DNA of 34,097 bases from IMG/VR virus record IMGVR_UViG_3300006128_000663, positions 1 to 34,097 of that record; one strand, 5' to 3'. Position numbers and translations under genes: made by a program. This stretch comes from a virus. Positions 477-30,249 of this stretch are shown one piece after another (the first letter of the stretch is position 1; each line of letters starts with the position of its first letter). The notes beneath the pieces were generated by a model. The model saw only the letters and a program-made list of their open reading frames with translations, was not told the DNA's origin and made no database searches.

Positions 477-535
477 AAAATTGCTTATACAGTTAAATGA
501 AATTAATATTACAAAAACAATCAATTGGAGCGATT

Positions 536-1084
536 ATGGCAGAACAAGAAGACTATATCGACAAGAATAACATCCACTTATTCATGGACGGCTTTAGTAA
601 TAAAAACGTAAAACCTGTTATCGAATGGATATTAAACAAGAACTTAATGCCAACCCAAGAACGTCCCAAGTATCTTACACTAGTAATTAACAGTCCGGGC
701 GGAGAAATGCACAGTGCATTTGCTCTGATCGACACTATGAAGGGCAGTAAAATTCCAATCCATACCATCGGACTTGGTATGATTGCCAGTTGCGGATTGC
801 TCACATTTATGGCCGGAGAACCGGGACATAGAACCATAACTCCAAATACCAGCATACTAAGCCATCAATACTCATGGGGCTCATACGGTAAAGAACATGA
901 ACTGATGTCACGAGTCAGAGAGTTCGAACTGTCCACTGAACGCATGATGGATCTGTATAAGAAATGTACAGGAATGAGTGAAAAAGACATTCGCAAGTGG
1001 TTGTTACCACCTGAGGATATTTGGTTAAGTGCTAAAGAAGCTGTCAAACACGGAATTGCTGACAAGATCAAGGAAATGTATTGA
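536..1084 (+). CDS. ClpP-like serine peptidase
   Basis: 182 residues, close to the size of mature ClpP. The catalytic triad of the ClpP/crotonase fold can be placed: Ser85 in GMIASCG, His110 in ILSHQ and Asp161 in PEDIWLSA, with the oxyanion-loop motif NSPGG at 52-56 and the C-terminal KHGIADKI in the position of the usual YGLVD. I chose ATG 536 because GGAG sits five bases upstream and the family begins near here; an in-frame ATG at 497 has no ribosome site. It is divergent from bacterial ClpP, for example SCG in place of SMG around the nucleophile. Phage copies may act as stand-alone peptidases, in head maturation, or together with host Clp ATPases; no ATPase gene is visible here. The fold is sure, the target unknown. 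Confidence 0.85.
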   Translation: MAEQEDYIDKNNIHLFMDGFSNKNVKPVIEWILNKNLMPTQERPKYLTLVINSPGGEMHSAFALIDTMKGSKIPIHTIGLGMIASCGLLTFMAGEPGHRTITPNTSILSHQYSWGSYGKEHELMSRVREFELSTERMMDLYKKCTGMSEKDIRKWLLPPEDIWLSAKEAVKHGIADKIKEMY

Positions 1085-11089: not shown

Positions 11090-11434
11090 ATGAAAAAGAT
11101 CATTGTAACTGTTATATCCTTATTAGCATCAATATCTGCATCACATGCCAGAGAATGGCCAAATGCATTTATTAGAAACTCATATAATACCTACTATATT
11201 GAAAATAAATTTGTTGTAAAAATGCCAATCAGTATCCCTATGGTAAATGTAGAACAGGGTAACGCAGCATACTTGTCATTTGTAACATCATATGTCAATC
11301 CACAAATTCAGGGAACTAATATTCCACAATATACACCTGCTATAAAGTGTTACATTCGCGGTAATATACCCTTTTATGAGGGGTGGGTTTATATGATTGC
11401 TGTAGATTCTACCACAATTAAACCCTGTCAGTAG
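11090..11434 (+). CDS. Small secreted (periplasmic) protein
   Basis: 114 residues with a clear Sec signal peptide: MKK, hydrophobic core IIVTVISLLASISA, and a signal-peptidase I site SHA|RE after residue 20. The mature part (about 94 residues) is beta-rich with two Cys (CYIRG and a penultimate KPCQ) that could form a disulfide. Not recognised. The gene follows the tRNA-Arg and precedes a promoter, so it may share the tRNA promoter. An exported phage protein of this size could act on the envelope or in superinfection exclusion, but there is no family evidence. Confidence 0.65.
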   Translation: MKKIIVTVISLLASISASHAREWPNAFIRNSYNTYYIENKFVVKMPISIPMVNVEQGNAAYLSFVTSYVNPQIQGTNIPQYTPAIKCYIRGNIPFYEGWVYMIAVDSTTIKPCQ

Positions 11435-13092: not shown

Positions 13093-14463
13093 ATGAAATT
13101 ACGTAACTTAAAAAACGTAGATGAAGCCATTTTAAGATTCGAGCCAGCTAATCAAGAACGTAATCTAGCCACACCCGGACAGGCCGGATTAGATTTTAAA
13201 CTATTCCATAATCTTGTTACAGACCATATAACAAGCCTACAAACAATCAACAGTAAGCTGGGTAATGCGCCAGATCTAGTAAAGAAACTCAATCAGCTTA
13301 AACTTGCATATAGTAAGATATTCGGTGCACCCATAGTTGATTCTGAGAATTTGCTAGCAGAAGTTTATCAGGACAGAGTTCAGTTGGTTGCTGATGCAAT
13401 CATCAACAAAAGCAAAACCAATCCAGTCAAAAAAGAAGAATTAGCTGGTATGATTGAACGAGAAGCAATGCTGAATCATGTTTCTGAATTGGGATTCAAG
13501 GGTAAGCAATCGACAGCATGGCCAGATTTTGTCAAGGATGTATTACAAGCACTTAAAGGCCATGTGGTTTTTGATCGTGGTCAAGCAGCAGCTAAGGCAA
13601 AACGCGACCAGCAAAAGCAATTGCTTGGTAAGATATCACAAATGATACATGATGCGATCGGCTATACTTTCCCAGATGGTGACCCTACTGATTATCTAAT
13701 ACCTCGTATGACAAAAATAGGTATAGATCGCTATGATGCGATGGATTGGTTAGATCGTGCTGCAAGATTAGACGGTCATAAAGACTATCACAGTATGCTG
13801 GCAGACTTTTGGGACCAATTCAAAGGAGACAATCCAGAACTTGCAAAAGATTACGGCATGGGCGATAATCCCTGGAATGAAAGCATGGTGCCAGGCGATG
13901 TTCTAATGCTTGAAGGTTTTAAAGAAGCTGTTGTTGGTACTGTGTTAAGTTTTGAAAATGACACAATCATAATAGAAGGTGCTGCATATCCGTTAAATGA
14001 ACAGGAAGCTAGAACACATTATCATGATTTTGAAATAACACCTGACGAATTTGATACTTTAACCAAAGATGGTAGACTCAAAAAGTGGAAGCATAGTTAC
14101 AATCCAAGCACACACAATCTAAGAGTATATGCTTCAAGTACCAGATCTGCTAGCGATCTAGCAAAAATAGGTCTTAACGAAGCTGAGTACCAAGGACGTG
14201 AAGTTAAACTTGGTAAGCCAATGGCCGGGGATATTAAAAAATTCAAAGTCTATGTGAAAGATCCCAAGACTGGTAATGTTAAAAAGGTAAACTTCGGCGA
14301 TAAAAATATGGAAATCAAGAGAGATGATCCAGAACGTCGCAAGAGTTTCCGTGCAAGACATGGTTGCGGAACACCTCGTGCAAGCGATCGTACCAAAGCA
14401 GCCTACTGGTCCTGCAGACTCTGGAGCAATAAAAAAGTTTCAGATATCTTAAAGGGCAAATAA
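13093..14463 (+). CDS. Late phage protein with C-terminal Cys/basic module, possible packaged protein
   Basis: 456 residues from ATG 13093; AGGTGA lies just upstream, whereas the in-frame ATG at 13069 would fall almost at the expected transcription start. The leader MKLRNLKNVDEA loosely resembles the MRxxEL leaders of the cluster. The body is mostly helical (about 1-260) and includes a small barrel-like segment with GDVLMLEGFKEAVVGTVLSF. The C-terminal 40 residues carry RARHGCGTPR and YWSCRLW. I recall this short Cys/Arg-rich module at the ends of many marine T4-like phage proteins. A late promoter box precedes it. Function unknown; packaging in the head is inference from the module and context. 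Confidence 0.65.
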   Translation: MKLRNLKNVDEAILRFEPANQERNLATPGQAGLDFKLFHNLVTDHITSLQTINSKLGNAPDLVKKLNQLKLAYSKIFGAPIVDSENLLAEVYQDRVQLVADAIINKSKTNPVKKEELAGMIEREAMLNHVSELGFKGKQSTAWPDFVKDVLQALKGHVVFDRGQAAAKAKRDQQKQLLGKISQMIHDAIGYTFPDGDPTDYLIPRMTKIGIDRYDAMDWLDRAARLDGHKDYHSMLADFWDQFKGDNPELAKDYGMGDNPWNESMVPGDVLMLEGFKEAVVGTVLSFENDTIIIEGAAYPLNEQEARTHYHDFEITPDEFDTLTKDGRLKKWKHSYNPSTHNLRVYASSTRSASDLAKIGLNEAEYQGREVKLGKPMAGDIKKFKVYVKDPKTGNVKKVNFGDKNMEIKRDDPERRKSFRARHGCGTPRASDRTKAAYWSCRLWSNKKVSDILKGK

Positions 14464-16034: not shown

Positions 16035-18761
16035 ATGCGTTTATTTGAAGTTTTTGATGCAACTCCGGTGAAGCTTATCAATGAAGGTGGTAATTTAGAA
16101 TTACCAGGCGGTCATGTAGCTGATTCTATCAATTTAAAAGTTCACGACAGATCATTCATTGTGCCTGTGCTTGAAAAACTGTTGAATAACATCAATGCTG
16201 CATATGCCAAAGCATATAATAAACCATTATGGTCATCTACTCTTCTAAAGAGTGGTAAGTTTCTAAGCGGTAGCAGTTTGCATTTCTTCAATACCAATAT
16301 ACCAGACAATGAGTTTGTCAAAGTAAAACCAAAGGTCGGTGATATTGATACACAAGTAAACAAAGCAGACGAAGAAAAGTTAGAAAAATTCCTAGAAAAA
16401 ATTCAAGGTAAGAAATTGGGCAATGCTAAATTCTTGGGATTTAAAAGAGGTAATGAACAATTCAGTAGTTTATGGGAGTTATCAACCCCGCCTCTTAAAA
16501 TTCAAATTGATTTAGAATTTGTTTCATACGAACGAGGTAAACCAACATCTTGGGCACAGTTTAGTCACAGCAGTAGTTGGGATGACATACAAGCGGGTAT
16601 CAAAGGTGTATTTCACAAATATGTTATTCAAAGTTTCTCATCACTTACAAAACAAGATTTTTTGTTAAGAAAGATGGTTGGTAGAGGCAAAGCAAGAACA
16701 TTACAAGATGTACCTGCTACTGATAATATGGTTAGTTTTGCTGTGAGCAGCAAAGAAGGCGGCGGATTAAGACAAAAATATGAGCCTGTTATTGATCCTG
16801 TTACAAAAAAGCCGTTGATAAAAGACGGTTTACCAGTGTTAACAGCAAGACCTACAGAGGGGTATGATCAAAGTCTAGCAGGTATATTCAGCAAACTATT
16901 TGGAAAAAAACTTAGTCATGCATTGTTTGAAAAACTCAGTGAAAAATTCTGGAGTTTTAAAGGCCTACTTGAAGTCATGAACTTGCTGTTGGATAACAAC
17001 GAAAAACAACGTGTAGTTGATTCGTTCACAGACAAGCTATTTGGTAAAGGTGCACAGGGTTTATACAAAGGCGATCCTGATCGCGATATCAAGGAAAAAA
17101 TAGTTGCTTTAAGAGTCATGTTAGAAACTCTAGACATGACAGAGCCAAGTGATCTAAAACAAAAAGTAAAAGATTACAAAGCATCATATAAGGTATTAGA
17201 TGAAGCTGATGCACCGAACTATGCTCGTCAAGGTATCAAACACATTTATAATCCCGGTTCTAGCACTGAAATGAAGGATGCTGATTTTTTAGAGTTAGTA
17301 AATGAAATTCATGCCAATGGTGGTAACCTAGATGGTTTTCCTATCAGTCTCAAAGTAGATGGTGCTGGTATTAGATTTGGTAAAGATGAAAATGGTCGTG
17401 CTTTTTTGATGACTTCTCGAGTTATCAAACCTTTATATGCAGAAAATGTCGGCGACTTTGAGAAGTACGGGAAGAGTGTGGGTCAAACTGACGAACAACT
17501 TGCTAGAACACGCAATTACGATCGTGCGTTAGACACTATTGTAAACAGCGATTGGATACAGAAACTACCTAAGGACACTATTGTACAAGCAGAAATGTTG
17601 TACAATCCCATGGCAGAAAAAACTGCAAATGGTTTAAAGTTTGTTAATATATCATACGACCCGAAAAAACTAGGGTCAACTATGACACTTGTACCAATCA
17701 GCTTCCGTAGATACAGTACAGGTGATGTATTACCTAATGCAAATGAAATAAAAGACATGCTATTAAAGAGCAGCACTTCTGCAATTAAATTTGTCAATAG
17801 TGATCTTAAACAAGCTAAAATAGACGTTAGTAAAATTATAGATCCAGTTGTTAAAATGGGAACAGAATTAAGAACAGCATTAGGATCGCGTAAGAAAGAT
17901 GATCCTCTTAAAGCAAAGGCAAAAGATATTCTTACACAAGTTAGGAAAGCACTTTCGGATGCAATTATCCATAATCCAAATCTTGTGGGCAAAGAACAAT
18001 TGGGTAAAAACCTAGAAGGCATAGTTATTAAAATGCCAAGTGGTATGTTAGTAAAAGTTACAAGTTCTGACATGCAAGATATTATGGCCGCAAAAAAGGC
18101 GGCAGCACCTAGAACGGGTAGCAATCGTATAAAGCCTGCAGTGGTTACAGTTGGTAGCTTTGTTGGTCATATCGGTCATCAACATTTGGTTAACCTAGTT
18201 CTACAAAAAGCCAAAAAGGTTGGTGGTGATCCCTACGTTTATATCAGTCCCAAAGTTGGTCCAGATGACCCATTCCCACCTCAGGTAAAATTAGAAACTT
18301 GGAAAAAACTATATCCAGAACATGCAAGTATGTTTCAAATTATAGCGGCTCCGGATGGCAGCCCATCCACTCCTATGAAAAAAATTGAAAAAGATTTAGT
18401 ATTACCCAAAACCAGTCCCTACAATAAAATCATCCTTATGGTAGGGGAAGATCGTTATGATAGTTTCAAGACATGGATAGAAACTCTTGAAAAGCGCATG
18501 AAAGATCCTGCTGCTCTAGCAAAGTTTGGTGGCACACAGGATCAAGTTAGTTATGAAGTAATAGGTATACCACGTAGCAAAGAAAACGGCGGCACTGATA
18601 TGAGCTTTACTGAACTACGCAATGTTCTTAAAAATCCCAATGCAACGGACGGACAAAAACTAGCAGTATGGGAAAAAGGATTCGATGTTAAGAAACTGGG
18701 AGTTCCTTATATCAAACATTTAATGGCAATTGCTGAAAAAAACATGGGGATAACAAAATGA
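16035..18761 (+). CDS. Fusion: pol-beta-like nucleotidyltransferase + KxDG ligase-like + HxGH nucleotidylyltransferase
   Basis: 908 residues. The leader MRLFEVFDATPVKLINEGGN has INE as a possible prohead-protease site. Domain 1 (about 25-250) has polymerase-beta nucleotidyltransferase signatures: Gly79-Ser80, GDID with Asp103/Asp105, and the third acid Asp159 in IQIDLEF. Domain 2 (about 385-690) looks like an ATP-dependent ligase: KVDG at 440-443 (adenylated Lys440), LEGIVIK (660-666, motif IV) and VKV (673-675, like motif V). Domain 3 (about 700-908) has the HIGH motif (712-715) of the CoaD/NadM family and a late SFTELR resembling ISSTxxR. Together these suggest nucleic-acid end repair or nucleotide/NAD chemistry. 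A late box lies upstream; ATGA couples it to the next gene. Confidence 0.75.
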   Translation: MRLFEVFDATPVKLINEGGNLELPGGHVADSINLKVHDRSFIVPVLEKLLNNINAAYAKAYNKPLWSSTLLKSGKFLSGSSLHFFNTNIPDNEFVKVKPKVGDIDTQVNKADEEKLEKFLEKIQGKKLGNAKFLGFKRGNEQFSSLWELSTPPLKIQIDLEFVSYERGKPTSWAQFSHSSSWDDIQAGIKGVFHKYVIQSFSSLTKQDFLLRKMVGRGKARTLQDVPATDNMVSFAVSSKEGGGLRQKYEPVIDPVTKKPLIKDGLPVLTARPTEGYDQSLAGIFSKLFGKKLSHALFEKLSEKFWSFKGLLEVMNLLLDNNEKQRVVDSFTDKLFGKGAQGLYKGDPDRDIKEKIVALRVMLETLDMTEPSDLKQKVKDYKASYKVLDEADAPNYARQGIKHIYNPGSSTEMKDADFLELVNEIHANGGNLDGFPISLKVDGAGIRFGKDENGRAFLMTSRVIKPLYAENVGDFEKYGKSVGQTDEQLARTRNYDRALDTIVNSDWIQKLPKDTIVQAEMLYNPMAEKTANGLKFVNISYDPKKLGSTMTLVPISFRRYSTGDVLPNANEIKDMLLKSSTSAIKFVNSDLKQAKIDVSKIIDPVVKMGTELRTALGSRKKDDPLKAKAKDILTQVRKALSDAIIHNPNLVGKEQLGKNLEGIVIKMPSGMLVKVTSSDMQDIMAAKKAAAPRTGSNRIKPAVVTVGSFVGHIGHQHLVNLVLQKAKKVGGDPYVYISPKVGPDDPFPPQVKLETWKKLYPEHASMFQIIAAPDGSPSTPMKKIEKDLVLPKTSPYNKIILMVGEDRYDSFKTWIETLEKRMKDPAALAKFGGTQDQVSYEVIGIPRSKENGGTDMSFTELRNVLKNPNATDGQKLAVWEKGFDVKKLGVPYIKHLMAIAEKNMGITK

Positions 18762-19597
18762 GAATAGCAGAAATATTAGAATGGGGTGAATGGGGCGGAC
18801 GTAATAAGAAAAAAAATCAGTCGCCATCTAGTAAAATAGAACAAGGTCCAGACATGGGAAATTGGACTTTAGCACTTAGTAAATTGCCAACCAGAATCCC
18901 TGCTGTCACTGGCCCAGATCCTAAGTTTGTAGCAAAATTAACCCATAAACGTAAGAAAGACACTGTGTTATATGGTGTCGGTGATAGTCAAGAAGAAGCA
19001 AAAGCAAATGTAATTGCAAAAATATCTGGTGATAAAACAGCTCCCATAACCTACAGTTCGATTACTGCTGATATTAATGCTCCATTTACCAAAGAATATC
19101 TAACCGGCGACGCTACTCTTTATTTTAAATTTGATAAACACAGCAACGAACCAGTAATGATTATGGCTAATAGAGATTATGTACGATCCTTTGGTTCTGA
19201 TATAAAAGAATTAGGATTCAAAAAAGCCAGTGCAGGTAGAACTTCTGCAAAAGGTGATGCTACACCTATTTGGGGATTTCCCATATCAAAATCTTTAGTA
19301 TCAGCAGTCGGTCTAATTCCAAATATGAGATATACTCTTGAATATACAACTGATGATAAAGATGGTAACTCTATTTTTGTCATGCATCCAGATAGTAAAA
19401 CACAAGGACCCCAGGACAAGTATAGAATGGGTGTACCTGGCGTAACTATTGCCGCTACAGAATTAACCGAAGATGAGTTAGTATACGAAGATAAAATCAA
19501 AGGTGCAGACGGTAAAGCCTGTTGGGACGGGTATCGTTATGCTGGCACCGAGGATGGTAAAGACAAGTGTGTTAAGGTCAAGAAAGCCAAACGATGA
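18758..19597 (+). CDS. Late protein with capsid-targeting-like leader and C-terminal Cys module
   Basis: 279 residues, not recognised as an enzyme. The leader MRIAEILEWGEWG has ILE, again matching the cleavage pattern. After a basic linker come mixed alpha/beta segments: KFVAKLTHKRKKDTVLYGVG, then a domain with YLTGDATLYFKFDKHSNEPV and a later VPGVTIAATELTEDELVYED. The C-terminal module KGADGKACWDGYRYAGTE then KCVKVKK is one I recall as a tail of marine T4-like phage proteins; its two Cys and Lys cluster suggest a small binding tag. It overlaps both neighbours by ATGA, so it belongs to one late operon with the fusion gene and the next gene. Confidence 0.65.
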   Translation: MRIAEILEWGEWGGRNKKKNQSPSSKIEQGPDMGNWTLALSKLPTRIPAVTGPDPKFVAKLTHKRKKDTVLYGVGDSQEEAKANVIAKISGDKTAPITYSSITADINAPFTKEYLTGDATLYFKFDKHSNEPVMIMANRDYVRSFGSDIKELGFKKASAGRTSAKGDATPIWGFPISKSLVSAVGLIPNMRYTLEYTTDDKDGNSIFVMHPDSKTQGPQDKYRMGVPGVTIAATELTEDELVYEDKIKGADGKACWDGYRYAGTEDGKDKCVKVKKAKR

Positions 19598-20951: not shown

Positions 20952-20977
20952 TTACTATTAATGGACTTTTGTCAAAA

Positions 20978-21649
20978 ATGAGCGATGTTTTATTAAAAGA
21001 TCAAATATTATTGGTTAAAAATCTTTTAACTGCTGATCAGTGCGATACATTGGTTAACGAATATAACAACTCAAAACAAAAGAAAACCATCGACTCCTAT
21101 ACTCATGCATTTACAGATAATGTTATTCAGTCAACTTCTCAATACATAGATTTAAAACCAAACACAGAAACTTTTAAAATTGTTCATTCAGCTACAGAAA
21201 TTTTAACCAACAAGTGGCTAACTTATCTAAAACAACGTAATGTTGCATTTTGTGAATTTTTAAAAATTCATTTAAAATACGCACAACACTATAGAATTGT
21301 ATGTTTTAATACAAATGAACAATTAGAACCTCATATAGATTCTGAGGATTTCACCTATGCAACATGTATTTTAAATCTCAATGACAATTTCAAAGGAGGT
21401 GAGCACAGTTTTTTTAACGGAAATTATAATATAACGTTAAAAAAAGGTAGCGGATTAATATTTCCTACTGGATGGTATTGGGTACATGAAATTAAAAAAA
21501 TTACATCTGGAAACAAATTATGTATACCTATTTTAATAACTCGACATCCTAAAAATTTGAATAAACAAATTCAAACCAAATTTTTCTTATTACAATCGGA
21601 TATCAAATATAATCATCATTTATTTTATAAATCTAGCGAGAAAATATGA
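20978..21649 (+). CDS. 2-oxoglutarate/Fe(II) dioxygenase, tandem paralogue 1
   Basis: 223 residues. The double-stranded beta-helix core has the iron-binding set: His119 and Asp121 in EPHIDSED and distal His170 in WVHEIKKI. Lys180 (SGNK) stands where Arg normally binds the 2-oxoglutarate carboxylate, as in prolyl-4-hydroxylases. The block NLNDNFKGGEHSFF is typical of the P4H-like family. Possible substrates include proteins, nucleobases and small molecules; the sequence does not decide. I chose ATG 20978 over a TTG nine bases earlier. It overlaps its paralogue by ATGA and is AT-rich compared with the surrounding late genes. No capsid-targeting leader is present. Confidence 0.82.
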   Translation: MSDVLLKDQILLVKNLLTADQCDTLVNEYNNSKQKKTIDSYTHAFTDNVIQSTSQYIDLKPNTETFKIVHSATEILTNKWLTYLKQRNVAFCEFLKIHLKYAQHYRIVCFNTNEQLEPHIDSEDFTYATCILNLNDNFKGGEHSFFNGNYNITLKKGSGLIFPTGWYWVHEIKKITSGNKLCIPILITRHPKNLNKQIQTKFFLLQSDIKYNHHLFYKSSEKI

Positions 21650-22314
21650 CCAATATTAAATTTAGCAATTTGATATTGCATGTTCCTGGTCTTGTTCCTT
21701 TTGAAGAATGCAACCTCATAATAAGAGAATTCGATAAACAAGATACGCCATTGCAACACGAAATATTTCTTAATTCATTAACAAATACGACTGTAGATAA
21801 AACTTCTTATAATGCAATTAAAATAAATCCATTAAGAACTGCATTCGAAATTACACATAACTATACAGAAACAATGATTAACAAATGGATAGACCATTTA
21901 AAATCTTTAAATTCATTTTCATGCAACTCATTGAAAAAAAACATACGATTCTCTAACACACATAGGATATTACGTTATCCCACTGGTGCTATCATCGAAC
22001 CCCATGTTGATTGGAGCCCTGGTATTTTTGGTAGTTGTACTTTAAATTTAAATGATGATTATGAGGGCGGCGAATTAAGTTTTTTTCATAGAAAGCATGA
22101 TATAATATTAAAAAAAGGAGATGCAGTAATATTTCCAGCAGATTTCTTTTGGACACACGAAATTAAACCTATTACCAAGGGAGTTAGGTATTGTTCAAAT
22201 ACCTTATTACAAATGGTTGCTGATAAACATTTAAGATTGTTAGTTGATAAATCTAACGAATATGTCTCGAATACCATACCAACTGAGTATTATCTACAAT
22301 ATAATAACGAATAG
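21646..22314 (+). CDS. 2-oxoglutarate/Fe(II) dioxygenase, tandem paralogue 2
   Basis: 222 residues, homologous over its length to the preceding gene. Iron ligands are His120 and Asp122 (EPHVDWSP) and His171 (WTHEIKPI); Arg181 (KGVRYC) is the usual 2-oxoglutarate-binding residue, unlike the Lys of the first copy. The blocks TLNLNDDYEGGELSFF and LKKGDAVIFPADFFW correspond closely to the neighbour. The difference at the cosubstrate site and the low overall identity suggest that the two copies have separate substrates or work as a pair. Translation is coupled by ATGA. Confidence 0.85.
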   Translation: MTNIKFSNLILHVPGLVPFEECNLIIREFDKQDTPLQHEIFLNSLTNTTVDKTSYNAIKINPLRTAFEITHNYTETMINKWIDHLKSLNSFSCNSLKKNIRFSNTHRILRYPTGAIIEPHVDWSPGIFGSCTLNLNDDYEGGELSFFHRKHDIILKKGDAVIFPADFFWTHEIKPITKGVRYCSNTLLQMVADKHLRLLVDKSNEYVSNTIPTEYYLQYNNE

Positions 22315-24110: not shown

Positions 24111-24335
24111 ATGAGAGCAAATGAATTCCTAACTGAAGGTTGTAATACACCTGTTATTGTCGTCGACGTTCAGACCGAATATTCAGGTATGCTAGATAGC
24201 GCAGAAAAAGTAGAATCAATTTTAAGGGAAAATAATATAAATCCGGGTATACGTACTTGTCCACATTGTGGTAAAACAGGCCAAACAAGCAATATGCTAC
24301 GTTGGCATTTTAATAACTGTAAATCAACGAAATAA
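24111..24335 (+). CDS. Chimeric small protein: capsid-targeting-like leader + zinc finger
   Basis: 74 residues. The leader MRANEFLTEG is the closest in the window to the T4 internal-protein type, with LTE as the cleavage tripeptide. PVIVVDVQTEYSG at 14-26 looks like the first strand of a larger phage protein that then breaks off. Residues 50-70 form a zinc finger, Cys50-x2-Cys53-x12-His66-x3-Cys70 (CPHCGKTGQ ... RWHFNNC), of the kind found at the C-termini of phage homing endonucleases. The gene is therefore probably a recombination product: leader, fragment and finger. Whether it is functional is open; a late box and AAAGG precede it. Confidence 0.6.
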   Translation: MRANEFLTEGCNTPVIVVDVQTEYSGMLDSAEKVESILRENNINPGIRTCPHCGKTGQTSNMLRWHFNNCKSTK

Positions 24336-24352: not shown

Positions 24353-25072
24353 ATGAGAGCCAGTGATTTAAATCCTGATGTTACTATAGATGCTCATCGC
24401 GCGGGCAATACCATATGGTTAGATTACTTCGAAGTACCTACTAGAGGCAAAGGGCACGGATCCAAAGAATATTTAAAATGGGAAAAAGGTCTACCCAAAG
24501 ATATTAAAATAATACGTCTATATGCATCTGATGCCGGTTATGGTAAAAGTCATGAATTTTGGGATCGTATGGGGTTTGATTACGAATTTCAAGATGACGA
24601 TAATCAAATGATTAAGTATATCAATACAGAAACAAAGTTAGATGAGACATTAAGAAAATTCTATCATGGAAGTTTTGACAACCTACCAGTAGGTACGGTA
24701 CTAACTCCCAGAGACAATTACGAAAGCAATTGGCAACATACGGATTTCTATGCACCATTAGAAAAGTATCGTCCCGATAACATGTTAGCACATCGAAAAA
24801 GTGTGTTTATATGTGATAATCCAGATGATGTTGATCTGGCAGGTGGTGCTACAGATTGGTTGTTTACAGTGGAACCACAAGGTCCTGTTCAACGTCATGA
24901 TCTTAACTGGGGATCAGAAATAAGTATGCTAATAAGTGATGGTTATGATATAGACAGTCCAGAAGTTAAACGTGCAGCCAAAAACTATTGGGCAGGTGTT
25001 CCGCACCATAATGAAAGTGTTTGGGAATATCTAACACCAGCTGCAAAGATAACGCATGTGGAGCCTTACTGA
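24353..25072 (+). CDS. GNAT acetyltransferase + ADP-ribosyltransferase-like fusion
   Basis: 239 residues. Residues 1-90 resemble a small GNAT domain: WLDYFEVPTRGKGHGSKEYL has the R/Q-x-x-G-x-G/A acetyl-CoA motif (RGKGHG, 31-36) and ends with EFWDRMGFDYEF, the usual last strands. Residues 103-239 begin FYHGSFDNLPVGTVLTPR, typical of ADP-ribosyltransferase-like toxin and phage domains (the F-Y-H-G-S first strand), followed by SVFICDNPDDVDLAGGATDW and a VEPQGPVQRHDLNWGSE block. The leader MRASDLNPD fits the cluster pattern loosely but lacks [LI]xE. The protein may acetylate and ADP-ribosylate host targets, as T4 Alt does the latter. It may be translated leaderless; the next gene starts at TGATG. 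Confidence 0.65.
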   Translation: MRASDLNPDVTIDAHRAGNTIWLDYFEVPTRGKGHGSKEYLKWEKGLPKDIKIIRLYASDAGYGKSHEFWDRMGFDYEFQDDDNQMIKYINTETKLDETLRKFYHGSFDNLPVGTVLTPRDNYESNWQHTDFYAPLEKYRPDNMLAHRKSVFICDNPDDVDLAGGATDWLFTVEPQGPVQRHDLNWGSEISMLISDGYDIDSPEVKRAAKNYWAGVPHHNESVWEYLTPAAKITHVEPY

Positions 25073-26628
25073 TGCGAGCTAGAGAATTTATTACAGAAAA
25101 TTACTTAATTGATTTATCATTAAATGAATTAAAAGATATACAATACGCTGTTCAAACTGAAGCAGACGATATCAATGACAAAAGTATGATGTCCAATTTA
25201 ACCAAGGAAAAAGTCAATGGATTAAAAAAAGATTATCAAGCATTAACTGCTATACAAAAAGTCATTACAAACAATATCAAAGCTATAACCTATGCAAAAG
25301 AAGATCCTACTATATTTGATACCAATATATTCATGTACGATTGGGATGGTGATGTGGACGGCGGTGTAGCTGCAATTCATATTGCATTAAAAGATAATCT
25401 AGCCGAGATCAAATGGTTAGGGAGTTATGATACATATGGTAGCAAACTCATGAAGTCTGCACTTGAAGTTGCAAAGAGCCGTGGTGCAACACAAGTGAAA
25501 GTTGATGCAAAATGGAATAGTGAAGGCTTCTATCGTAAAATGGGATTAGCTGATGTACCCAATCAAGAGCCAGATACAGGAGAAGCATTCAGAGGCAGTA
25601 AGTTAACCACAATGGCAGGAACTCTTGAAGAAGGTGGTTGGGCCAGTACAATAACACAAGGTACTGTTATACATCCCAGTACAGTTAAATTAGCACTAAA
25701 AGTTGTTGAAAAATTTATTAATAAATTCAATACTTGGTCAAAAACAAAAGGTATCCCACCTGTGCGTATTGGTCATCCCACCGGCAGTAGTGCATATCAC
25801 GACGTAGATACAGAAGATAAAATCTACGGCGATATTGATTTACAAATCATTGTACCAGAACTAGAAGAACTACAAAGCAAGTCGACTGGACAAATTCAAT
25901 ATTTTTGGAATAAACTATTTGGTGAATTTGGCAAAACACTAAGCTGGGTCCATCCAGACAGTGATCCCGGACATCCGATCCTACAAGTTGCACCAGATGC
26001 GTGGGTACAAATTGATTTTATGCCTCATCCAGAATCTCTTGCCACCTGGGGACGTTTTCGTGCAACCCCGGAACGCGGTGTTAAAGGATTACTAAATGGT
26101 AACATATTTTCTATTATTGGTCTCATGCTCAAATTAAATCTACAACATAGTGGTGTGCAGTATAAAGAACGTGACGGCAAACGTATGCCTTATACAGACA
26201 CTAAGAAAGACTTTGAACTTAAAACTCTAACAACTAATATAGAAACGTTTGTACGTGATATATTTGATCACGAATATCAAACAATAACTGGGAAAGATTC
26301 TAATACAGCTGAAGTAGATCCATTGTTACAAAAACATGCAGGAAGTGATTTAGAAACTGTTAAAATCAGTAACTTAGTAAATGCTGTTAAAGGTTTGGCA
26401 CGTAGTTTTGAGTTGAACCACATGTACGGAAAGGGCATATTAAGTGATTATAAAGATGCCAATGAGTGGTTGGCAAAATTTTGGGAAATGTATGAAGCTA
26501 AAGCTATTGGAGCAGTAAATGCCGTGAAGCGAGACAAAGCTGAAACACCAGAAGCTGTTGCTAGAGCAAAAGCAGATAGAGATGCTATCATATCTGGATT
26601 GGCCAGGATTAAGGAAATGTTTAAATGA
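25072..26628 (+). CDS. GNAT acetyltransferase + pol-beta-like nucleotidyltransferase fusion
   Basis: 518 residues from ATG 25072, overlapping the previous stop as TGATG; a frame open back to 25021 has no ribosome site. The leader MRAREFITEN has ITE. Domain 1 (about 95-175) is GNAT-like: DGGVAAIHIALKDNLAEIKW, GSYDTYGSKLMKSALEVAKS, GFYRKMGL. After LEEGGWAST (185-193), another possible cleavage point, domain 2 (about 200-440) has nucleotidyltransferase motifs: Gly238-Ser239 in GHPTGSS, GDID at 253-256, and VQIDF (312-316). These match domain 1 of the 908-residue fusion protein. The C-terminus is helical and charged. An added group such as AMP on host RNA or protein is plausible, unproven. Confidence 0.7.
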   Translation: MRAREFITENYLIDLSLNELKDIQYAVQTEADDINDKSMMSNLTKEKVNGLKKDYQALTAIQKVITNNIKAITYAKEDPTIFDTNIFMYDWDGDVDGGVAAIHIALKDNLAEIKWLGSYDTYGSKLMKSALEVAKSRGATQVKVDAKWNSEGFYRKMGLADVPNQEPDTGEAFRGSKLTTMAGTLEEGGWASTITQGTVIHPSTVKLALKVVEKFINKFNTWSKTKGIPPVRIGHPTGSSAYHDVDTEDKIYGDIDLQIIVPELEELQSKSTGQIQYFWNKLFGEFGKTLSWVHPDSDPGHPILQVAPDAWVQIDFMPHPESLATWGRFRATPERGVKGLLNGNIFSIIGLMLKLNLQHSGVQYKERDGKRMPYTDTKKDFELKTLTTNIETFVRDIFDHEYQTITGKDSNTAEVDPLLQKHAGSDLETVKISNLVNAVKGLARSFELNHMYGKGILSDYKDANEWLAKFWEMYEAKAIGAVNAVKRDKAETPEAVARAKADRDAIISGLARIKEMFK

Positions 26629-26722: not shown

Positions 26723-29700
26723 ATGAACATAGATAAAATGGTGGGTCAATTTCGAGAATTCTTGTTATTCTGTAAGGATCATTTAGAATTAGATAAACTA
26801 CCTAAAATACATTGGTATACAAACGATGATGTAGGTGAATCACGTCCTAGTTTTGGATCATTTCATAATGAAGATCAAGTTATTAAAATTGGTATCAATA
26901 ATCGCCATCCACTGGATATAATGAGAACACTGGCACATGAGCTTACTCATTATAAACAATGGACCCAAAATAAACTGCATAGTGGTAGTGGCGAAACAGG
27001 CAGTCCTGAGGAAAACGAAGCCAATGCTGTAGCTGGTATTATCATGCGTGACTGGAATGCTGCTCATGAAGAAATGTTCAAACAGACTGCAATTGACGAA
27101 GCAATAACTCTGGGTAAGAAAAAAGATGGTAGAGCAGCAAAATGGATTGACCATATGTATGCTACCCTACCACGTAATCCAATGAATCCCGATCAAATTG
27201 CACTTGTGTATGGCGAGGGCGATGATCAAGGACTAGCATTAATAGAATTAGAACTAGACCACTACTATGCTGATACTGCTAATATCAAATGGATACAAGC
27301 ATATCCACAACGTCAAGGTGTTGGTCGTAAAGCTCTAACAGACATACAACATATGGCAGCAGAAGCAGGTGTAAGTCTTTCATTGGTTACGTGGAAATTG
27401 GGTAAAGTTTCGCCCAAGGCACTTGCCAAGTTTTATAAGAGCATGGGGTTCGGAAAAGATACTAAGAGCGGACAGTTAAAATGGACTGCACCTGTTAGTG
27501 AATCTGACGCAGATAGTGTCCCGCAGGAAGTTTGGGATTTTATAAAAGATCTTACAAGTGAGGACGTCGGTAAAGAACGTATAGACGACTATGTAGTCCA
27601 CTTTGAAGGATTTAGTGACATGTGCCAAATTGCCGCAGCAGAACGTTGTAAGTTACCCAGCACAGATCCTCTACATTTAAACAAGTATGACGATGTGTAT
27701 GATGAGGTACTTGCAGATTTTATTGGCAGAGAAGCAGGTGATAAACCTGTAGCAAGTGGTTTAGCAGGAGACGAATGGTATCCTATATTTTACGCAGTAT
27801 TCTATAAACCAATTTTAGATGAATCAACATTAACACACATTGATCAACATCACGATCACGGAGGAAGTTTAGAAGGTTATGTAGTAGATACAGATCAACC
27901 TCAGTTATACAACTATCTAACAGGACAAGGTGCTAGCCCAGAATTAGCCAAAAAGATAGCATCAAAATATCACCGCGTCGGTATTATACGTAACATGTGG
28001 GTTGATGAAGATTTACGCAACGGCGGAATAGGCAGCGAAATGCTAGAATCTGCAATCGATCAAGCATTTGGGCAAGGTGCAGATGCTATTATATTAGTAG
28101 CTGACATGGCAGAAGATAACTCACAACTTGGTAAACCTCTGGACAAATGGTATGCGGGTTGGGGATTCGAGACTGTTGGTCGTGCCGGCAGTGATATTGT
28201 AATGGTTCTTGATAACGAACTACACGAAGTTTGGAGCAAAAAATACAAAAAAAGTATCAATTGTAGTCATCCAAAAGGCTTTTCACAGAAGGCTCACTGC
28301 GCCGGACGTCGTGCTAGACAAGCAGGCAAACACACAAAGAGCAAAAGCGTGAGTGAATCTGCTATTAATAAACTATATGATCGCAAACATTTGGATACGT
28401 GTTTAGTTAAACTTTGCAGTATGATAGTTGAGGGACAACAAACCGATCCGGACTATCACGGTATGGTCGCTGCGGCTGTGTTAGATCCGGATCATAATAA
28501 AACTGCTAGTACCAGTACTAGAAAAGATGGTAAATGGAGACATGCTGAACGTAATGCTATAGACTTATACCTAGAAACATATGGCGAAATCCCTGAAGGT
28601 AGCATTATTGTAACAACATTAAGTCCGTGCGATAACGCAATGAGCAATCGTTATGGACATAGTTGTACTGACTTAATTAATGAATGTCCAGTAAACGAAG
28701 TCTACTGTGGATATATGGATCCAAGCCAACTTGACGAAGATTTTGAATTCACTGTCGAAGATACTAAAAATACAAAAATACAAGAGCTATGTAAGAAGTT
28801 TGCTGCTACATTCCTGGTCAATGAGAACTTTGCAGACGGTAAGGGCCCGGGTAGACCAGGAGATAGTCAGCGTCATGGTATTCCCAAAGGTGCTACAATA
28901 GCACAATTAGAGAAGGCTGCTAAGGCACCAGGACGCAAAGGTCAACTAGCACGTTGGCAGTTGAACATGCGTAGAGGTCGTGCTAAGAATGAAAGCATAG
29001 TAAGTGAAGGCACTACAGCGTTTCATAGCAGTGCAGTATCAACTATTTCTAAGTTTAATTCTTTCAGTCATTTTGGGACAGAAGCAGCAGCCGCGGATAG
29101 AATTAAAAATCTTATCAAACAAAAAAGACTAAGTCCCGATGCACTTATTACAATCTATAGTGTTGATTTAAATATTAAGAATCCACTTATGATAAGAGAC
29201 TATGCTAATGTGCAGCATTCAGCAGGAATCTATGCAGCAGCTCTTAAAGATAAAAAGATAATTGATCAAGATATTATGGTTAGAATACGATCAAACAATC
29301 CATTTAGCGATGTCGACTCGGATCAATCCACTGAGGAAAAAAGCAAGTTATGGCCTAAGTACGAAAAAAATAATCTAGCTACTATAAAGAAAATTCTTAA
29401 AAGCAAGGGATATGACGGATTAGTTTATAAGAACGCAGCAGAAGATAAAGGTAGTTTATCATATGTTATTCTTGATCCTAATCAAGTACGTATAACAGGA
29501 AAGAAACAAATTCCTGCTAAAGAATTGATCAAAACAAATAAACTTAAAGTTGCCGAAGATAGCAAATTATTAGACAAGCCAACACCAACTGTTGGTGAGC
29601 TAGCAGAAAAATATCATACCAGTTTGTTAGCAGTTGAACAACAAATGCGCAAGGGTATTAGAGTAGAGATGGAACATACTGGTAAGTATAGAGTTGCAAA

Positions 29701-29773
29701 GGAAATAGCATTAGATCATCTAGGGGAAGATTTATACTATTACGAAAAATTAGCTAAAGTTGAGAAAAAGTAA
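26723..29773 (+). CDS. Polyvalent protein: metallopeptidase, two GNATs, deaminase, ADP-ribosyltransferase-like, DUF5661-like
   Basis: 1016 residues. 1) 25-115, zincin-type metallopeptidase, HELTH at 72-76 with Glu in EENEAN (96-101). 2) 155-245, GNAT, QRQGVGRKAL at 196-205. 3) 265-360, unrecognised. 4) 410-500, second GNAT, LRNGGIGSEML at 431-441. 5) 513-542, Cys/basic module NCSHPKGFSQKAHCAGRRAR. 6) 552-690, cytidine-deaminase fold, HAE at 607-609, PC at 635-636 and a distant Cys648. 7) 707-756, basic module KGPGRPGDSQRHG ... NMRRGRAK. 8) 763-925, ADP-ribosyltransferase-like, AFHSS and SKGYDGLVYKN. 9) 953-1016, DUF5661-like, MEHTG ... EIALDHLGED. Aravind's group described such polyvalent proteins as packaged and injected. 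Its own N-terminus lacks the usual leader. Confidence 0.78.
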   Translation: MNIDKMVGQFREFLLFCKDHLELDKLPKIHWYTNDDVGESRPSFGSFHNEDQVIKIGINNRHPLDIMRTLAHELTHYKQWTQNKLHSGSGETGSPEENEANAVAGIIMRDWNAAHEEMFKQTAIDEAITLGKKKDGRAAKWIDHMYATLPRNPMNPDQIALVYGEGDDQGLALIELELDHYYADTANIKWIQAYPQRQGVGRKALTDIQHMAAEAGVSLSLVTWKLGKVSPKALAKFYKSMGFGKDTKSGQLKWTAPVSESDADSVPQEVWDFIKDLTSEDVGKERIDDYVVHFEGFSDMCQIAAAERCKLPSTDPLHLNKYDDVYDEVLADFIGREAGDKPVASGLAGDEWYPIFYAVFYKPILDESTLTHIDQHHDHGGSLEGYVVDTDQPQLYNYLTGQGASPELAKKIASKYHRVGIIRNMWVDEDLRNGGIGSEMLESAIDQAFGQGADAIILVADMAEDNSQLGKPLDKWYAGWGFETVGRAGSDIVMVLDNELHEVWSKKYKKSINCSHPKGFSQKAHCAGRRARQAGKHTKSKSVSESAINKLYDRKHLDTCLVKLCSMIVEGQQTDPDYHGMVAAAVLDPDHNKTASTSTRKDGKWRHAERNAIDLYLETYGEIPEGSIIVTTLSPCDNAMSNRYGHSCTDLINECPVNEVYCGYMDPSQLDEDFEFTVEDTKNTKIQELCKKFAATFLVNENFADGKGPGRPGDSQRHGIPKGATIAQLEKAAKAPGRKGQLARWQLNMRRGRAKNESIVSEGTTAFHSSAVSTISKFNSFSHFGTEAAAADRIKNLIKQKRLSPDALITIYSVDLNIKNPLMIRDYANVQHSAGIYAAALKDKKIIDQDIMVRIRSNNPFSDVDSDQSTEEKSKLWPKYEKNNLATIKKILKSKGYDGLVYKNAAEDKGSLSYVILDPNQVRITGKKQIPAKELIKTNKLKVAEDSKLLDKPTPTVGELAEKYHTSLLAVEQQMRKGIRVEMEHTGKYRVAKEIALDHLGEDLYYYEKLAKVEKK

Positions 29774-30249
29774 TGAGACTGTATGAATTGTTCGACCTAG
29801 AAGAATTAAAGATTGATAATGTGCGCGGTGCAGGTGCTGTACCCGATAATCAAAATGTTGATTATCGCGGTCTACGTGTCCAAATGAAACCCAGCATGTT
29901 TCTCGAACTAGCACACAAACTGAGACATCCAGAATCAGTCGAAGGACTTGCTAAGCATATTGAACAAGGTGGTGCAATTGGAGCACCATTTCTCATAATT
30001 GAAATTCCCCGAGATTGGTGGGAAAAAGACAGCAAGTTTGCAAGTATTCCAACAGTTGTTGGGCATGAAGGTCGTAATCGTATGATGGCTATTCAAAAAG
30101 TAGAAGGTGATCACTCTGTAGAAGTTCACTTGTTCTTCCGCGGAGAAGTTCGAGCAAGACATCTTACTCCAAAAATTATTGATAAACTCAACTGGATGAT
30201 GCGTAGCCAAGATGGCAAGTTAATAGACGGTCCGCTATTTTACACTTGA
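29773..30249 (+). CDS. Conserved phage protein (GHEGRNRM family) with capsid-targeting-like leader
   Basis: 158 residues. The leader MRLYELFDLEEL contains LEE. The body has RGLRVQMKPSMFLELA, IGAPFLIIEIPRDWW, VVGHEGRNRMMAIQKVEGD and RARHLTPKIIDKLNW, then GPLF at the end. I recall this set from proteins in many marine phages; GHEGRNRM resembles the GQHR-type loop of ParB/Srx folds, so it may be a catalytic ParB-like domain. The gene starts at TAATG, sharing one base with the polyvalent-gene stop, and is translated with it. Confidence 0.65.
   Translation: MRLYELFDLEELKIDNVRGAGAVPDNQNVDYRGLRVQMKPSMFLELAHKLRHPESVEGLAKHIEQGGAIGAPFLIIEIPRDWWEKDSKFASIPTVVGHEGRNRMMAIQKVEGDHSVEVHLFFRGEVRARHLTPKIIDKLNWMMRSQDGKLIDGPLFYT

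What the first reader, a model, noticed from the sequence alone, without database searches (positions are those of the whole stretch)
26723..29773. A 1016-residue polyvalent protein with at least five enzyme-like domains
A single gene joins a zincin metallopeptidase (HELTH), two GNAT domains, a deaminase fold (HAE, PC, distant Cys), an ADP-ribosyltransferase-like domain and a DUF5661-like tail, separated by basic Cys-containing modules. Polyvalent proteins were proposed by Aravind and colleagues as injected conflict proteins, but this particular order, especially the deaminase between two basic modules, is one I do not recall as described.
Basis: partly seen in the sequence, partly recalled or inferred. 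Interest (0 to 1): 0.75.

Follow-up and report, generated by a model that had tools for sequence, protein, structure and literature searches.

The report
Phage enzyme chain with head-protease sites
One phage gene strings together five enzyme-like domains, a small family domain and two small basic modules, and at every join there is a short motif of the kind a T4-type head protease cuts, so the protein may be loaded into the virus head as a chain and cut into separate effectors before injection.

Summary
The ORF is real: 26723-29773, 1016 aa, intact, and identical in an overlapping public contig. The predicted domains hold: zincin, two GNATs, deaminase (AlphaFold model; nearest solved folds RibD/TadA), ART-PolyVal-type ART, DUF5661, plus an uncharacterised domain X. 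Only the first basic module has cysteines here. This domain order was found nowhere else.

The two basic modules are the unexpected part. Each is preceded by [LIVM]-x-E: E in 70/71 and 69/70 contexts, while the residue between varies. That is the T4 gp21 prohead-protease motif. In this protein exactly one such motif lies in each of the eight interdomain linkers. In relatives, single domains start with T4-like capsid-targeting peptides ending at the matching site. All 11 module-bearing contigs with a substantial T4-type MCP match also encode gp20 and gp21. In cultured cyanophage S-CREM2, non-structural enzymes found in virions carry such peptides.

Best reading: a head-packaged enzyme polyprotein cut by the maturation protease (inferred). 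Against: this protein has no N-terminal targeting peptide, and the fragment holds no head genes.

The parts
26723..29773 (+). whole ORF, 1016 aa polyvalent-type protein
   Evidence: identical in contig 3300025781_000038
26753..27082 (+). MP: zincin metallopeptidase domain, aa 11-120, HELTH 72-76 and E97
   Evidence: 50 relatives; conserved HExxH...E; fold of relative L024 matches zincins
27092..27100 (+). junction site IDE|A (aa 124-126), MP/GNAT1
   Evidence: matches the start-peptide site of L021 'NTE|AIQL'
27194..27499 (+). GNAT 1, aa 158-259
   Evidence: PF13508 2.7e-4; stand-alone CTS-led relatives
27494..27502 (+). junction site VSE|S (aa 258-260), GNAT1/X
27518..27808 (+). domain X, aa 266-362, unknown
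   Evidence: relatives in L056, L079, each preceded by [VM]xE|
27815..27823 (+). junction site LDE|S (aa 365-367), X/GNAT2
27830..28216 (+). GNAT 2, aa 370-498
   Evidence: PF00583 1.2e-7
28220..28228 (+). junction site LHE|V (aa 500-502), GNAT2/M1
   Evidence: P1=E in 70/71 and P3=LIVM in 66/71 M1 contexts
28232..28315 (+). M1: 28-aa basic module, WSxKYKxSINCxxPKGFSQKAHC, aa 504-531
   Evidence: A1 alignment; at least 589 confirmed relatives in IMG/VR; Kyanoviridae phages
28349..28357 (+). junction site VSE|S (aa 543-545), M1/deaminase
   Evidence: matches the start-peptide end of stand-alone deaminases, e.g. L008 'FTE|K'
28391..28816 (+). cytidine-deaminase-fold domain, aa 557-698, H607-A-E609, P635-C636, C648 (C-x11-C)
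   Evidence: PF00383; 13 relatives, invariant Zn ligands; model and PDB
28817..28825 (+). junction site VNE|N (aa 699-701), deaminase/M2
   Evidence: P1=E in 69/70, P3=LIVM in 57/70 M2 contexts
28826..28987 (+). M2: basic helical module NFADGK...W..NM..G, aa 702-755
   Evidence: A2 alignment; at least 150 confirmed relatives
29000..29008 (+). junction site VSE|G (aa 760-762), M2/ART
29021..29521 (+). ADP-ribosyltransferase of ART-PolyVal type, aa 767-933
   Evidence: 31% to Tunturi_5, 37% to L256; those hit PF18760
29549..29557 (+). junction site VAE|D (aa 943-945), ART/DUF5661
   Evidence: matches L006 'INE|SKLLDKPTP'
29570..29764 (+). DUF5661 domain, aa 950-1014
   Evidence: PF18905 2e-8, above cut-off
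24111..24335 (+). upstream gene starting MRANEFLTE|G (CTS-like)
25072..26628 (+). upstream gene starting MRAREFITE|N (CTS-like); weak GNAT match
29773..30249 (+). downstream gene overlapping the stop of the ORF, starts MRLYELFD (CTS-like)

Best explanation
The gene encodes a head-cargo polyprotein of a T4-superfamily phage. The chain (zincin, GNAT, X, GNAT, M1, deaminase, M2, ART, DUF5661) is loaded into the prohead core. The capsid maturation protease (gp21 type), which also trims the major capsid protein, cuts after [LIVM]-x-E at each of the eight junctions. This leaves separate enzymes, with M1 and M2 freed as small basic pieces resembling T4 internal proteins, to enter the host with the DNA. 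There the zincin, GNATs, ART and deaminase would alter host proteins and nucleotides. Shown here: the domains, the site pattern, its match to start-peptide sites of stand-alone relatives, and the T4-type head genes in relatives. Inferred: packaging, cutting, injection and targets.
For: M1 and M2, found by patterns inside the modules, are preceded by [LIVM]xE in 66/71 and 57/70 contexts with P1=E in 70/71 and 69/70 while P2 varies. All 8 linkers of this ORF hold one such site; 0 of 200,000 random placements of its 22 sites do that. Sites coincide with the start-peptide ends of stand-alone homologues of GNAT1 and the deaminase, and junctions before X and DUF5661 carry the site in relatives too. 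T4 gp21 cuts after L/I-X-E and the first 10 residues of IPIII suffice as CTS (PMC9026906). MCPs of module-bearing contigs have LxE| at the probable propeptide border. The 11 contigs with a substantial T4-type MCP match all have gp21 and gp20. CTS-like starts: 77/638 genes in module loci vs 1/293 control genes and 0/2680 internal Met. S-CREM2: 7/50 virion-detected proteins with the CTS pattern vs 1/157 undetected, p=2e-4, including all four non-structural, non-lysis enzymes; virion-detected gp137 and gp160 carry basic Cys modules shared with the M1 protein of S-SRM01.
Against: This ORF has no N-terminal CTS; it starts at the zincin domain. The window and its 8-kb extension show no T4-type head genes, and the twin contig has no gp21 match. 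P3=V is common here but not in the published T4 motif. [LIVM]xE is short and also occurs 14 times inside the domains. No proteomics exists for this phage. Several large module-bearing contigs (up to 343 kb) show no T4 head genes at all. The window encodes a ClpP-like protein with head-maturation-protease PHROG hits, so another protease is possible.
Confidence: 0.58

Rival explanations
1. Self-processing polyvalent protein: the protein is packaged or injected and its own zincin domain releases the parts, as Iyer et al. proposed for polyvalent proteins.
For: The zincin keeps HExxH and the third ligand and is the commonest polyvalent domain (PMC5512222).
Against: The same junction sites precede M1 and M2 in proteins without a zincin: only 5/71 and 8/71 have one in the same ORF. 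The motif is that of a Glu-specific serine protease whose gene accompanies the T4-type head genes of relatives.
Confidence: 0.14
2. An intact multidomain protein, packaged or made during infection; the linkers merely contain common V/I-x-E triplets and the domains act tethered.
For: No CTS on this ORF; the motif is short; no proteomics.
Against: One site in every linker; near-invariant P1 Glu and hydrophobic P3 with variable P2 before mobile modules; coincidence with start-peptide sites of homologues.
Confidence: 0.18
3. The modules and their conserved edges are recombination seams: exchange between many genes carrying the same short sequences shuffles domains, and the Glu is part of that shared seam rather than a protease site.
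For: Extreme shuffling of M1, M2, MP and deaminase in different orders.
Against: P2 and the P1' residue vary while P3 and P1 hold, a protease-like pattern not expected of a DNA seam; junctions next to other domains share the motif without M1 or M2.
Confidence: 0.07

Closest known systems
Polyvalent proteins (Iyer et al. 2017, PMC5512222)
   Same: One polypeptide with disparate effector domains: zincin, ART, GNAT and others; phage-encoded; proposed to be injected.
   Different: That work proposes release by the embedded zincin peptidase and its text does not name gp21; here every junction carries a T4-type prohead-protease motif, and M1/M2 have no Pfam or PHROG family.
T4 internal proteins IPI-III and Alt with capsid-targeting sequence (PMC9026906)
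   Same: Relatives begin M[KR]xxEF[IL]xE|, like the short T4 CTS cut by gp21; Alt is an ART carried in the head and is also cut at its C-terminal end.
   Different: T4 cargoes have a cut at one or both termini and are single proteins; this one is a chain of domains with internal sites and lacks its own CTS.
S-CREM2 virion-associated enzymes (PMC10665884)
   Same: SAM hydrolase, kinase, Cas9-like and cytidylyltransferase proteins detected in virions start with CTS-like peptides.
   Different: No M1 or M2 was seen in the parts of those four that were read; the authors suggest encapsulation, and 'propeptide' does not occur in their main text.
Multiple cleavage of T4 gp22/gp67 and of giant-phage propeptides (PMC9026906, PMC10052503)
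   Same: One substrate cut at several Glu sites by the prohead protease.
   Different: There mainly scaffold and propeptides are removed; here the sites separate enzyme domains.

Membership tests
Polyvalent protein | several unrelated effector-type domains in one polypeptide | tested here: met
Polyvalent protein | domain types of the published catalogue (zincin, ART, GNAT) | tested here: met
Polyvalent protein | genomic context of phage packaging or late genes | tested here: inconclusive
   fragment without head genes; module relatives sit in T4-type genomes
Polyvalent protein | transferred into the host with the DNA | not testable with these tools
   needs virion and infected-cell proteomics
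T4-type CTS-led ejection protein | N-terminal capsid-targeting peptide ending in L/I-x-E | tested here: not met
   the ORF starts at the zincin domain; the upstream frame is closed by a stop; met by neighbours and relatives
T4-type CTS-led ejection protein | gp21-type cleavage motif | tested here: met
   one per junction; V at P3 is outside the published L/I rule
T4-type CTS-led ejection protein | gp21 protease encoded in the same genome | tested here: inconclusive
   window and twin contig are fragments; 11 of 11 module-bearing contigs with a substantial gp23 match have it
ART-PolyVal (PF18760) | score above the family cut-off | tested here: not met
   no direct hit; homologues L256 and Tunturi_5 score 44.6 and 69.2 bits against a cut-off of 31.2, so it is called ART-PolyVal-like
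Zinc-dependent deaminase superfamily | H-A-E and PC...C zinc ligands in the deaminase fold | tested here: met
Zincin metallopeptidase | HExxH plus third ligand in the zincin fold | tested here: met
   (model of a relative, L024)
DUF5661 (PF18905) | score above the family cut-off | tested here: met
   34.9 bits against 27

The most novel reading that the evidence does not exclude
T4-superfamily phages of fresh and marine waters use a shuffled kit of enzyme domains and small basic modules (M1, M2, DUF6321 and others) joined by maturation-protease sites. Cargo is packaged as polyproteins and split inside the prohead, so head maturation doubles as effector processing, a DNA-phage counterpart of RNA-virus polyproteins with the protease supplied in trans by the capsid.
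Probability: 0.48. Interest if true: 0.85.

Novelty: new variant of a known kind. Interest (0 to 1): 0.7.

Why it matters
Which proteins tailed phages inject with their DNA is poorly known outside a few model phages. If the [LIVM]xE junctions and CTS-like starts mark head cargo, injected effectors could be read from sequence across thousands of environmental genomes, and processing of at least some polyvalent proteins would be assigned to a known protease. It also makes a testable prediction for cultured cyanophages: neo-N-termini directly after LxE in virion proteomes that already exist.

Tried and rejected
Chance or assembly artefact: rejected. One AF2 model of the whole protein: the mixed alignment put fragments on the wrong domains, so a zincin-M1-M2 relative and the deaminase were folded separately. 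Close relatives of the X-GNAT2 and ART parts by single-sequence scan: only the twin contig; an ART alignment found 77 loci. M2 in cultured phages by tblastn: none at 1e-5. M1/M2 families: none in Pfam or PHROGs (M1 tested inside the ORF and in the 50-aa L071 protein). The M2 list was biased by a search pattern that contained the Glu (NENFADGK), so it was not used as evidence; one search repeated it with a pattern inside the module. An in-frame CTS upstream of the ORF: none; an MRIYEI-stop lies at about 26627. Full order in other records: none. The VIA-align list tests only the zincin part of that model; nothing is claimed about the folds of M1 and M2.

Full report
What was checked. Window 26723-29773 holds one intact 1016-aa ORF. 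The window is a whole virus record of 34,097 bp, so a fragment. A second IMG/VR contig, 3300025781_000038, starts at window base 11152, is identical wherever compared, and runs 8.1 kb past the window's end into a family-B DNA polymerase with an intein and a MazG-like gene. The gene is therefore not a join specific to one assembly.

Domains. Pfam gives GNAT twice, DUF5661 and dCMP_cyt_deam. The N-terminal HELTH domain scores only weakly to zincin families. It has 50 relatives with conserved HExxH, a downstream Glu and 'RTLAHE'. A 26-sequence AF2 model of the relative L024 (zincin-M1-M2, mean pLDDT 77, zincin part mostly above 80) matches zincins at the top of the PDB list: abylysin and selecase, IrrE/PprI, Wss1 and SPRTN-like proteases; best Foldseek E 0.019, best Z 8.4. 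These scores are modest, but they agree with the motif. The deaminase model (pLDDT 92, pTM 0.88) has RibD, TadA and phage dCMP deaminases as nearest folds (E 1.4e-7 to about 1e-4); all 14 aligned sequences keep the HxE, PC and distant Cys ligands. The ART segment has no direct Pfam hit, but it is 31% identical to a Tunturi_5 domain (2e-11) and 37% to L256, which score 8e-19 and 3e-11 to ART-PolyVal.

The same parts are shuffled elsewhere. In 80 loci the zincin, M1, M2, deaminase, GNAT1 and DUF5661 occur alone or as MP-M1-M2, M2-MP, DEAM-M2, M1-DEAM-MP-M2, MP-D5661 and other orders. The full order was found only here. L256 joins ART-PolyVal, an HD domain and M2; L054, L060 and L075 carry M1 at the C-terminus of proteins that by inspection start like nucleotidyltransferases.

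The modules and their edge. M1 (WSxKYKxSINCSNPKGFSQKAHCAGRKK) and M2 (NFADGK...L...W..NM..G) have no Pfam or PHROG family. In the best 80 loci each, the residue two before W of M1 is Glu in 70/71 distinct contexts and the P3 residue is L, I, V or M in 66/71. For M2 the figures are 69/70 and 57/70. P2 is spread over many residues. The upstream domains are mostly unrelated, so this is not simply inherited context, although the contexts are not fully independent. T4 gp21 cuts after L/I-X-E (PMC9026906). When a module opens a protein, the same Glu ends a peptide such as MRAFEFLTE|K or MRADEFISE|N, close to a T4 capsid-targeting sequence (for IPIII the first 10 residues suffice).

Junctions of this protein. 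It has 22 [LIVM]xE triplets. Eight fall one each in the eight linkers (P1 at 126, 260, 367, 502, 545, 701, 762, 945); random placement never reached eight in 200,000 trials. Linker borders came from homology HMMs and tblastn/PHROG ranges, except that for M1 and M2 the edge was set at W and N, and the first linker was cut at 132 where similarity to stand-alone GNAT1 proteins begins. The site positions match those in relatives: L021 'NTE|AIQLTPRSEKARAWIDRVYALYP' against 'IDE|AITLGKKKDGRAAKWIDHMYATLP'; L008 'FTE|KDYKIHGRKHLD' against 'VSE|SAINKLYDRKHLD'; L006 'INE|SKLLDKPTP' against 'VAE|DSKLLDKPTP'; and X in L056 and L079 follows VNE| and MYE|.

Head context of relatives. Of 34 large module-bearing contigs, 11 have gp21 (PF03420), and the same 11 are those with a substantial gp23 match and with gp20; one more has gp20 at the contig end. 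Six of their MCPs that were read carry LxE| followed by N, S or G at the probable propeptide border. M1 occurs in Kyanoviridae, between gp16 and gp17 in S-SM2 and Bellamy. S-SRM01 has a protein with M1, DUF5661 and DUF6321 next to the neck, sheath-stabiliser and small-terminase genes.

CTS-like starts. A strict pattern occurs at 77 of 638 gene starts in module loci, 1 of 293 in control phage loci and 0 of 2680 internal Met. A looser one: 175/636, 2/290, and 12 of 35 window genes, which lie on both sides of this gene. Such a high share means that not every such start need be a cargo tag.

Independent proteomics. The published virion list of S-CREM2 (PMC10665884) was compared with its genome. 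A pattern based on the T4 CTS residues that matter (aromatic or aliphatic, x, x, F, hydrophobic, x, E) is found in 7 of 50 detected and 1 of 157 undetected ORFs, Fisher p 2e-4; one of the seven, gp122, is a baseplate protein and probably chance. SAM hydrolase MKDFDSFLEE, kinase VKRFDAFLTE, cytidylyltransferase MKNFSSFLTE and the Cas9-like protein (FASFMAE ending at 25) all have it. The pattern was written after seeing these starts, so the p-value is descriptive.

How it probably works. Inferred: the chain enters the prohead core by unknown signals (it lacks a CTS), the maturation protease cuts the eight junctions, and the parts are injected. The basic M1 and M2 would be freed as IP-like peptides, perhaps DNA-bound. 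Why this protein lacks a CTS is the main gap; M1/M2 or core contacts might recruit it. The known polyvalent model puts processing on the zincin, but the sites are found mostly in proteins without one.

Verdict. A confirmed polyvalent-type protein; the likely new element is junction processing by the head protease and the module kit. New variant of a known kind.

Noticed in passing
window 16035-18761: A 908-aa protein with an unknown PHROG domain (48-372) and a cytidylyltransferase domain (696-869), starting MRLFEVFD (CTS-like); similar enzymes are reported in cyanophage virions (PMC9602691, PMC10665884).
   Followed up: partly
window 497-1084: ClpP-like protein whose best PHROG hits are head maturation proteases; a possible alternative protease.
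   Followed up: no
window about 26627: A CTS-like MRIYEI followed at once by a stop, just before the ORF: possible relic of a lost targeting start.
   Followed up: no
window 13093-14463 and 18758-19597: C-terminal basic Cys stretches (RRKSFRARHGC...YWSCRLW; GKACWDGYRYAGTEDGKDKCVKVKKAKR) that look like further modules of the kit.
   Followed up: partly
L333:35343-36233 (S-CREM2 gp160) and contigs G001, G010: gp160, a virion protein, carries a stretch like the N-terminal part of the major head protein (phrog_696), and short gp23 N-terminal matches lie in small separate frames of G001 and G010; meaning unknown.
   Followed up: no
L339:1016-6519: Family-B DNA polymerase interrupted by an intein, with a separate ORF between its halves, just beyond the window.
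   Followed up: no
window 20969-22314: Two adjacent, similar genes that read like 2-oxoglutarate/Fe(II) oxygenases (sequence inspection only).
   Followed up: no
L334:4705-7314 (S-CREM2 gp12): A Cas9-like protein detected in virions has a CTS-like motif near its N-terminus.
   Followed up: partly
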